64,000 bases of DNA from Halovivax limisalsi. Its GTDB lineage: Archaea; Halobacteriota; Halobacteria; Halobacteriales; Natrialbaceae. The stretch is from the NCBI RefSeq assembly GCF_023093535.1, contig NZ_CP095757.1:1054001-1118000 (forward strand), in the 5' to 3' direction. A program made the position numbers and the translations under genes. Positions 29,219-34,914 of this stretch are shown here, piece by piece (position 1 is the first letter of the stretch; the number at the start of each line of letters is the position of its first letter). The notes under the pieces were generated by a model. It saw only the letters and a list, made by a program, of their open reading frames with translations. It was not told the origin of the DNA and searched no databases.

Positions 29219-29293
29219 GGGCACGTAGCTCAGTCCGGATAGAGCGTCGGACTTCTAATCCGACGGTCGTGGGTTCGAATCCCATCGTGCCCG
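29219..29293 (+). tRNA. tRNA-Arg (anticodon TCT)
   Basis: The cloverleaf is complete. The acceptor stem is GGGCACG/CGTGCCC, and the D arm carries GCTC...GAGC. The anticodon stem is TCGGA/TCCGA with loop CTTCTAA (anticodon TCT, reading AGA). The T arm is GTGGG/CCCAT with loop TTCGAAT. The discriminator base is G, CCA is not encoded, and no intron is seen. Total length is 75 nt. Confidence 0.95.
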
Positions 29294-33779: not shown

Positions 33780-34257
33780 CTGCCCAGTTCGAGGGTCCGA
33801 TCACTGGGGCATGAGTATCCGCCGGGCCCCATGGCGGTCGCAGGTAGATACTCTCAGGAGTGGCATTAAAGAAACCGGCCTCAAAAACCGATTTGTCGGA
33901 ACCTCGACGATACAATCTACCGAAGCGACGTGAATCCTACCGGTAGATCGTAGTGACCTGAACCAGAGCTGTCGGTATGATGCATTCGAGGGAAATTTTG
34001 TCCTATCAATTAGTATCGAGTCCGTCACTTCTCGGAACTGCGTTTATTTTCAAAGACTGGTCTGCTAGCGCAACGCTTATTGGCCGTACCAGTCAAGTGA
34101 CTAGTACCGATAAAGCCGTGAGAGGTCCATGACCTCGCATAGGTGTTAAAAGCACCTCGTCTGCTGGATCCTCGAACCACGTTTGATGGACCGGCGATCT
34201 AGCAGGCTGGCGGGTGGGAGGCCGATCACGGACCGGCATTACACCGAGTAGAACCAT
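33780..34257. other. Gene-free interval of the accessory island
   Basis: These 478 nt are less GC-rich than the rest of the window and hold no credible frame. The striking content is the run of hairpins at 34055-34205, described as a separate feature. ATTTTGTCC and TTAGTATCGAG near 33990-34020 form the AT-richest part upstream of those hairpins. Confidence 0.5.
34055..34205 (+). ncRNA. Candidate structured non-coding RNA (consecutive stem-loops)
   Basis: Within 151 nt several exact complementary segments follow one another. GACTGGT (34055-34061) pairs with ACCAGTC (34088-34094) around an inner AGCG/CGCT. GAGGTC/GACCTC has a 3-nt loop (34122-34136). AGGTG/CACCT has a 7-nt loop (34141-34157). 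A 10-bp stem, CTGCTGGATC with GATCTAGCAG (34161-34170 and 34196-34205), encloses TCGAAC/GTTTGA. Two stems contain a G-T pair that would be G-U only in a plus-strand transcript. GGTCCAT (34124-34130) can instead pair with ATGGACC (34186-34192), so a switch between folds is possible. No known RNA family is recognised. Confidence 0.4.
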
Positions 34258-34914
34258 CTATCGGTCGTAAGATGTGAGATCATTCTCCAACTGAATAAGC
34301 GCGCCAGCCGTGCAGTCTGTAATCGTTTCCGAATCGAGAATCGACAGCCAGTCTGTTTCTTTTTTATAGTCCTCTGCGATGGCTCCGGCAAAGCAGTCAG
34401 CGGCCTGAATTCCTGGCGTGTTATGCGAACTTCCGACCTGTATAGTTGCTTCAGGAACGAATGTCCCGATGTGTGTTGCAACTGAATTCGACTGTGCATC
34501 GGACGCAACGCGATCGAATTCGAAAATGACTCGACGGGCATCCAGTGCCCCATACTCCAGGAGGAGCTCCCCGTACGCGTATCCAGTGAGAGCCAAGTCC
34601 CAGTCCGGCGGAAAAGACACGTCCTGATAGAGCAGATATTGGTCCTCCAGTCTGCGTAATTTTTCTCTGGTGAAGAGCGAATACCCGAATTCCAGCCCGC
34701 GAACCTCCTCAAAGCACTCGAGAATCCGTCGCTTTTGGGTTTCGTTCAGATCGTTCCACTTCGCTTCCTCGACATGTTGAATATTTCGAACGGTCTTCTT
34801 GGCACAACGTCCTGCCTGGATCTGATCGCCGAAAACCACCCCGACAACGACAACATCGCAGTCTCCCTGGATGAGGCCTCGAAAATGACCCGAAACATCT
34901 CCATACCCTTGCAT
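34258..34914 (-). CDS. DUF3800 family protein
   Basis: This 218-residue protein ends in a segment typical of DUF3800, TPGIQAADCFAGAIAEDYK. These proteins have an RNase-H-like fold and are scattered among mobile and defence-associated genes. The canonical opening DESG appears here as DVSGHF at residues 6-11, so an active-site residue may be altered or the N-terminus shortened. Less biased codon use and the gene-poor setting suggest horizontal acquisition. The role is unknown. Confidence 0.7.
   Translation of the reverse strand: MQGYGDVSGHFRGLIQGDCDVVVVGVVFGDQIQAGRCAKKTVRNIQHVEEAKWNDLNETQKRRILECFEEVRGLEFGYSLFTREKLRRLEDQYLLYQDVSFPPDWDLALTGYAYGELLLEYGALDARRVIFEFDRVASDAQSNSVATHIGTFVPEATIQVGSSHNTPGIQAADCFAGAIAEDYKKETDWLSILDSETITDCTAGALIQLENDLTSYDR

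What the first reader, a model, noticed from the sequence alone, without database searches (positions are those of the whole stretch)
34055..34205. Unannotated run of stem-loops with two competing folds: candidate new structured RNA
In a gene-free part of the accessory island, several exact inverted repeats follow each other within 151 nt. They include a 10-bp stem enclosing a 6-bp triloop hairpin. Two stems contain a G-T pair that is tolerated only in a plus-strand RNA, which suggests the stems are conserved in RNA and not in DNA. A 7-bp pair (34124-34130 with 34186-34192) competes with three of the local hairpins, as in a switch. No known RNA family matches by eye.
Basis: partly seen in the sequence, partly recalled or inferred. 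Interest (0 to 1): 0.6.

Follow-up and report, generated by a model that had tools for sequence, protein, structure and literature searches.

The report
New structured RNA paired with DUF3800 nuclease
The stem-loops belong to a real, previously unlisted 136-base RNA of salt-loving archaea that sits tail-to-tail with a predicted RNase-H-type nuclease and outlives that nuclease when its gene breaks, as an RNA antidote to a toxic enzyme would.

Summary
The stem-loops are real, but the RNA is displaced from the reported coordinates: 34104-34239, plus strand.

The same RNA lies next to every intact DUF3800 gene of one haloarchaeal subfamily (15 of 15 loci; here DUF3800 is 34258-34914, minus strand, convergent). 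It is far better conserved than the gene. Eighteen homologues support one fold (94% of pair cells paired, 21 pairs with two-sided changes, 0/500 shuffles), and a TATA box stands exactly 27 bases upstream. It matches no Rfam family.

A second, unrelated DUF3800 subfamily carries, also downstream and convergent, one or two hairpins that share the same internal loop (C-NAUG-A-Y-C / G-G-N-NNGA-G), probably the nuclease-recognition site. DUF3800 is predicted to have an RNase HII-like fold with conserved acidic residues.

At seven loci the nuclease is frameshifted, truncated or missing while the RNA stays intact. The reverse was seen only for two diverged DUF3800 genes. Most likely the RNA restrains a toxic nuclease (type-III-like toxin-antitoxin or abortive defence). 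Structure and association are shown by comparative evidence; transcription, binding, toxicity and inhibition are inferred.

The parts
34104..34239 (+). Class I DUF3800-linked structured RNA (model R1/R2 match, 139 bits)
   Evidence: covariation; MFE equals consensus fold
34077..34080 (+). TATA-like box TTAT (haloarchaeal TTWT), 27 nt upstream of RNA model start; a TTWT starts exactly here in 10 of 18 loci, background 0.21 of 18
   Evidence: consensus TTWT from PMC4983044
34095..34096 (+). AA, candidate '-10 WW' element (A/T in 16/18 and 18/18 loci)
   Evidence: PMC4983044
34106..34109 (+). P1 5' arm; pairs with 34234-34237 (two outer pairs change on both sides)
34116..34121 (+). P2 5' arm CCGUGA; pairs with 34226-34231 UCACGG; three pairs with two-sided changes
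34127..34134 (+). 5' strand of shared internal-loop module C-[NAUG]-A-Y-C; partner 34213-34220 G-G-U-[NNGA]-G
   Evidence: same module in class II hairpins
34133..34138 (+). P3 5' arm; pairs with 34210-34214 (98.9% of cells paired)
34141..34157 (+). P4 hairpin AGGUGU-UAAAA-GCACCU; loop-closing pair takes five pair types
34159..34207 (+). P5 hairpin, variable and covarying; shortened in the two loci that have no DUF3800 at all
34213..34220 (+). 3' strand of shared internal-loop module GGUGGGAG
34258..34914 (-). DUF3800 protein (PF12686), 218 aa, predicted RNase HII-like fold, conserved D6, E50, D173; convergent, stop codon 18 nt from the RNA model end

Best explanation
The element is an independently transcribed small noncoding RNA (start near 34104-34106, at least to 34239, plus strand) and is the RNA half of a two-component, patchily distributed module whose other half is the convergent DUF3800 gene. 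Most likely mechanism: DUF3800 is an RNase-H-fold nuclease that is harmful when free. The RNA folds into a rod (P1-P2-P2b-internal loop-P3) topped by a three-way junction with P4 and P5. The nuclease recognises the internal-loop module C-NAUG-A-Y-C / G-G-N-NNGA-G, binds the RNA and is held inactive, in the manner of a type III toxin-antitoxin or AbiF-like abortive system. If transcription stops, for example in viral infection, the RNA would fall away and the nuclease would be released. Shown by comparative evidence: the RNA, its fold, its strand and promoter, its partnership with the gene, the shared module, and RNA outliving nuclease. Inferred: transcription, direct binding, toxicity, inhibition and a role in defence.
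For: Protein search found 13 intact and 1 frame-broken homologue plus fragments in 391 haloarchaeal genomes. RNA model search independently found 16 genomes at E < 1e-17, including all of those 14; L004 and L020 add two more intact pairs. The RNA keeps ~87% DNA identity where the protein keeps 67%. Covariation. Promoter. The second subfamily has hairpins with the same internal loop, also convergent and with TATA-like boxes upstream in several loci; the strict motif occurs nowhere else in 622 kb scanned over both strands. Searching with the class II hairpin model led to two DUF3800 genes not seen in the earlier searches. RNA kept while the nuclease is broken or gone: G335 frameshift and Halorussus ruber C-terminal remnant; G154 and G158 no DUF3800 of this subfamily; G110 and G258 frameshifts at different sites with a compensatory U-A to C-G change in the hairpin; G198 lacks the gene at the syntenic hairpin locus. 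Fold: top nine PDB matches are RNase HII / RNase H2. Neighbourhood contains PIN/MazE-like and HicBA toxin-antitoxin genes at two loci. Precedents: AbiF RNA acts as a type-III-like antitoxin with two hairpin motifs (PMC12373285); AvcID has a non-ToxN toxin with an RNA antitoxin (PMC10511110).
Against: No transcript, binding, nuclease or toxicity data. A 650-bp gene offers more room for a frameshift than a 136-nt RNA, so part of the asymmetry could be target size, and some genomes are drafts. The convergent arrangement differs from the type III loci described in PMC5086642. RNA and mRNA 3' ends may overlap, so antisense regulation of the nuclease mRNA is possible. A guide or cofactor RNA would explain the partnership equally well, though not the orphans.
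Confidence: 0.55

Rival explanations
1. The RNA is an essential cofactor or guide of the DUF3800 nuclease (an RNP effector like OMEGA or CRISPR systems), activating or directing rather than inhibiting it.
For: Strict partnership, extreme conservation of the core, RNase-H-like fold; DUF3800 proteins occur as accessory genes in some type V and VI CRISPR loci (PMC10910872, PMC12669027).
Against: No variable single-stranded segment that could be a guide: the only variable part, P5, is a paired, covarying hairpin. RNA persists when the nuclease is broken or absent, which a pure cofactor should not. Class II RNAs are only hairpins of invariant core and paired stem.
Confidence: 0.2
2. The RNA is a cis-acting element or antisense regulator controlling DUF3800 mRNA (3'-overlap, processing or termination).
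For: Tail-to-tail layout with about 0-20 nt between RNA and stop codon; Rfam calls DUF3800-VI 'Cis-reg', lying upstream of the gene on the same strand.
Against: Own TATA box at -27 on the opposite strand; G-U pairs only make sense in the plus-strand RNA; structure kept in loci without the gene; antisense pairing alone would not need a conserved fold or compensatory changes.
Confidence: 0.15
3. The RNA has a housekeeping or regulatory function of its own and the nuclease merely hitchhikes next to it.
For: Orphan RNAs in G154, G158, several class II loci and a viral contig.
Against: Patchy distribution (16 of 391 haloarchaea; no further hits in a phylum sample); two unrelated RNA scaffolds next to two DUF3800 subfamilies share one loop.
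Confidence: 0.08
4. Chance stem-loops in intergenic DNA, or a DNA-level palindrome.
For: The first-listed stems at 34055-34103 are private to this genome.
Against: Homology, covariation, promoter and strand asymmetry.
Confidence: 0.02

Closest known systems
Rfam DUF3800-associated RNA motifs (DUF3800-I to XI; here DUF3800-VI, RF02915, tested)
   Same: Structured RNA beside a DUF3800 gene; function unknown; three-way-junction element present.
   Different: No covariance-model match. DUF3800-VI, recovered as positive control at bacterial plasmid loci, is ~52 nt, upstream of and co-oriented with the gene; the present RNA is 136 nt, downstream, convergent, with its own archaeal promoter and a different core.
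Type III toxin-antitoxin systems (ToxIN, CptIN, TenpIN, AbiQ)
   Same: Proposed logic: RNA restrains an adjacent nuclease; class II has tandem hairpin repeats.
   Different: RNase-H-like rather than ToxN fold, convergent rather than co-operonic, class I not repeated, no pseudoknot seen.
AbiF / RCd22 of Clostridioides difficile (type-III-like, PMC12373285)
   Same: Two conserved hairpin motifs in a noncoding RNA next to a toxic protein; similar to class II.
   Different: AbiF is an Abi_2/Cas13-related protein, RNA upstream of the gene; no sequence match found by Rfam scan.
AvcID (PMC10511110)
   Same: RNA antitoxin with a non-ToxN toxin.
   Different: Toxin is a nucleotide deaminase; RNA unrelated.
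RNase HII / RNase H2
   Same: Predicted fold of the DUF3800 protein (Foldseek E 2e-5 to 3e-4).
   Different: No sequence match in the PDB; different acidic-residue layout (D6, E50, D173); activity unknown.

Membership tests
Rfam DUF3800-I..XI RNA families | Match to a family covariance model | tested here: not met
   positive control
Rfam DUF3800-I..XI RNA families | Adjacent to a DUF3800 gene | tested here: met
Rfam DUF3800-I..XI RNA families | Position and strand as in DUF3800-VI (upstream, co-oriented) | tested here: not met
Type III toxin-antitoxin | Toxin of ToxN/CptN/TenpN/AbiQ family | tested here: not met
   Pfam PF12686, RNase HII-like fold
Type III toxin-antitoxin | Antitoxin repeats upstream of the toxin in one operon with a terminator between (PMC5086642) | tested here: not met
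   convergent, separate promoter
Type III toxin-antitoxin | RNA binds and inhibits the toxin protein | not testable with these tools
   needs pull-down and growth assays
Type III toxin-antitoxin | Antitoxin made of tandem repeats | tested here: inconclusive
   class I single copy; class II one or two ~61-nt repeats
DUF3800 protein family (PF12686) | Score above the curated cut-off | tested here: met
   26.3 bits vs 21
RNA-guided OMEGA/CRISPR effectors | Guide segment or RuvC/HNH effector | tested here: not met
   no variable unpaired segment; no such domain
   7-bp competitor not conserved

The most novel reading that the evidence does not exclude
A previously undescribed class of archaeal RNA-protein toxin-antitoxin or abortive-defence system. 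An RNase-H-fold DUF3800 nuclease is neutralised by a convergently encoded RNA, and one small internal-loop module (C-NAUG-AYC / GGN-NNGA-G) has been mounted on two unrelated RNA scaffolds. Viruses and relatives may keep orphan copies of the RNA as protection.
Probability: 0.4. Interest if true: 0.85.

Novelty: new variant of a known kind. Interest (0 to 1): 0.74.

Why it matters
DUF3800 proteins are widespread on plasmids and mobile islands and in some CRISPR loci, and several unrelated RNA motifs sit beside them, but their function is unknown. This case supplies a defined RNA, a defined candidate recognition module shared by two RNA scaffolds, and an evolutionary asymmetry (RNA survives, nuclease breaks) that turns an open question into a direct experiment in haloarchaea, some of which are genetically tractable.

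Tried and rejected
Rfam scan of window and homologues: no match. A weak HgcC hit in L015 (E 0.3) lies away from the element and was treated as chance. Seven-base 'switch': not conserved. K-turn or box C/D reading of GAUGA...GA: rejected because the loop lacks the 3-nt bulge (inspection). Weak R1 hits (L040-L046, E 0.002-0.1): partial, treated as chance. Class I homologues in viral contigs and phages: none. Viral hit L138: inside a terminase gene, chance. PDB sequence search with the DUF3800 profile: no relative. Search for a guide segment: none. No empty insertion site could be defined for the class I cassette in genus g78, because DUF302 and trm1 are apart in G198 and G360. The Weinberg 2017 paper is not in the library, so statements on DUF3800-I..XI beyond DUF3800-VI rest on Rfam names, on citing papers and on memory.

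Full report
Setting. The window is a haloarchaeal chromosome (G000 C1:1054001-1118000). The only tRNA or Rfam hit in it is a tRNA-Arg at 29219. The reported stem-loops lie 3' of a minus-strand gene, 34258-34914, which encodes a DUF3800 protein (PF12686, 26.3 bits against a cut-off of 21).

The observation. The inverted repeats exist and the segment folds better than dinucleotide shuffles on both strands. Comparison with relatives redraws the element. DNA next to every DUF3800 homologue is conserved from ~34104 to ~34239 with a sharp left edge, for instance 86.7% DNA identity in Natronorubrum daqingense where the protein is 67% identical. The region 34055-34103 is not conserved as stems; it holds a TATA-like box. 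TTWT, the haloarchaeal TATA consensus (PMC4983044), starts exactly 27 nt upstream of the RNA in 10 of 18 loci, against 0.21 of 18 expected from neighbouring positions. A/T pairs at -9/-8 fit the -10 WW element.

The fold. A 15-sequence alignment gave the same consensus by RNAalifold and by hand. With 18 homologues 94.2% of cells pair, 21 pairs change on both sides, and none of 500 shuffles or slid registers comes near. The alignment was fitted to the model and so leans to the structure, but the unfitted alignment and the single-sequence MFE of the window RNA and of the Halomicrobium katesii RNA agree; the orphan L038 RNA on its own does not fold better than shuffles, so for that copy the structure rests on the alignment. 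Order: P1, AUAA internal loop, P2 (CCGUGA/UCACGG), 2x2 purine loop, P2b (GGNC/GGCC), the loop NAUG/NNGA, P3, then a three-way junction with P4 (AGGUG...CACCU) and a variable P5. G-U cells outnumber A-C cells 72 to 12, so the plus strand is the RNA.

Partnership. The protein was found as 13 intact copies, one broken copy and fragments in 391 haloarchaeal genomes. An independent search with the RNA model found 16 of 391 at E < 1e-17, including all 14. L004 and L020 add two intact pairs, so 15 of 15 intact class I nucleases have the RNA, always convergent and abutting. A phylum-wide sample gave no further hits. Flanking genes otherwise differ from locus to locus, so the RNA and DUF3800 form the unit; one copy is on a plasmid among PIN and HicBA toxin-antitoxin genes, another lies beside a MazE/PIN pair.

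A second RNA with the same loop. Other haloarchaeal DUF3800 genes (PF12686 search) lack this RNA, but seven of nine carry one or two hairpins with a period of about 61 nt just past the stop codon. Read on the strand convergent to DUF3800, their core is C-NAUG-A-U-C ... G-G-N-NNGA-G inside a freely covarying stem. Class I has C-NAUG-A-C-C ... G-G-U-NNGA-G. The strict motif (fixed CGATGAYC and GTNNGAG with outer and inner pairing) occurs nowhere else in 622 kb, both strands counted, except for one alternative pairing of the same 5' half inside L020. Two more plasmids, in Halanaeroarchaeum and Halobacterium salinarum, have the hairpin in the same place. A model of the hairpin found further genomes, and in two of them, G154 and G227, it pointed to convergent DUF3800 genes not seen in earlier searches. 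Two scaffolds, two protein subfamilies and one loop make that loop the best candidate for the protein's binding site.

RNA outlives nuclease. Class I: in G335 the nuclease is split between frames, and in Halorussus ruber only a C-terminal remnant is left, yet both RNAs are intact. G154 and G158 have the RNA but no DUF3800 of this subfamily; both orphans have a shortened P5 and keep P2 by a two-sided change (A-U to G-C). G154 does carry a class II hairpin pair and its DUF3800 about 15 kb away. L020, of the same genus as G154, has RNA plus DUF3800 between the same neighbours (DUF302 and trm1); homology between the two breaks off at the RNA's 3' end, where only L020 has the DUF3800 block. Class II: G110 and G258 carry frameshifts at different sites in the nuclease while the hairpin is intact with a U-A to C-G compensatory change; in G198 the hairpin stands at the syntenic locus without the gene. 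Five more hairpin loci show no DUF3800 within 1.5 kb, and one viral contig carries a lone hairpin (not followed further out). The reverse was seen only in L095, a diverged protein, and L109, whose genome has a hairpin 82 kb away. Target size and draft quality weaken this asymmetry but do not remove it.

The protein. AlphaFold2 gives pLDDT 82 and pTM 0.85. The nine best PDB matches are RNase HII / RNase H2 catalytic subunits. D6, S8, G9, E50 and D173 are invariant across both subfamilies. The FLSHclust paper also describes DUF3800 as an RNase H fold with a catalytic rearrangement, and notes earlier association with putative ncRNAs.

Known relatives. As a positive control, cmscan of bacterial DUF3800 plasmid loci recovered DUF3800-VI upstream of and co-oriented with the gene. 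The haloarchaeal RNAs match none of the 4227 families and differ in place, strand and core. Functionally the nearest precedent is AbiF/RCd22, whose two-hairpin RNA neutralises its protein partner directly. Type III loci proper have co-oriented repeats upstream of a ToxN-fold toxin, which is not met here, so the module works, in my reading, like type III but is not filed as a member.

Verdict. A new structured RNA family: very likely (about 0.95). Functional partner of DUF3800: very likely (about 0.9). Antitoxin-like restraint of a nuclease: the best single mechanism, about 0.55, untested.

Noticed in passing
L096, L097, L098, L100, L101, L103, L110, L111, L121, L123 (3' of DUF3800): Second RNA class: one or two tandem ~61-nt hairpins convergent to a different DUF3800 subfamily, sharing the internal loop of the window RNA; no Rfam family.
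   Followed up: partly
L116 and L117 (genomes G110, G258): DUF3800 frameshifted at different places in two related species while the neighbouring hairpin is intact with a compensatory change.
   Followed up: yes
L137, viral contig IMGVR_UViG_3300019926_000023, minus strand 2974-2999: Lone class II hairpin in a viral contig, no DUF3800 in the 7 kb held; possible decoy against the nuclease.
   Followed up: partly
L109 (G258:C5:113913) and L117 (G258:C5:195809): An intact DUF3800 without a local hairpin, in a genome with a hairpin 82 kb away: possible action in trans.
   Followed up: no
L020 340-1038 against L052 6438/6439: DUF3800 block present or absent at the same DUF302-trm1 locus, homology ending at the RNA 3' end.
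   Followed up: partly
L120, L122, L125, L126, L128: Further class II hairpins with no DUF3800 within 1.5 kb, some near integrases; L120 has a compensatory change in the inner stem.
   Followed up: partly
   Followed up: no
L143, L144, L146, L141, L145 near 1377-1455: Rfam DUF3800-VI upstream of bacterial plasmid DUF3800 genes, with sub-threshold matches in Burkholderiaceae that may extend the family.
   Followed up: no
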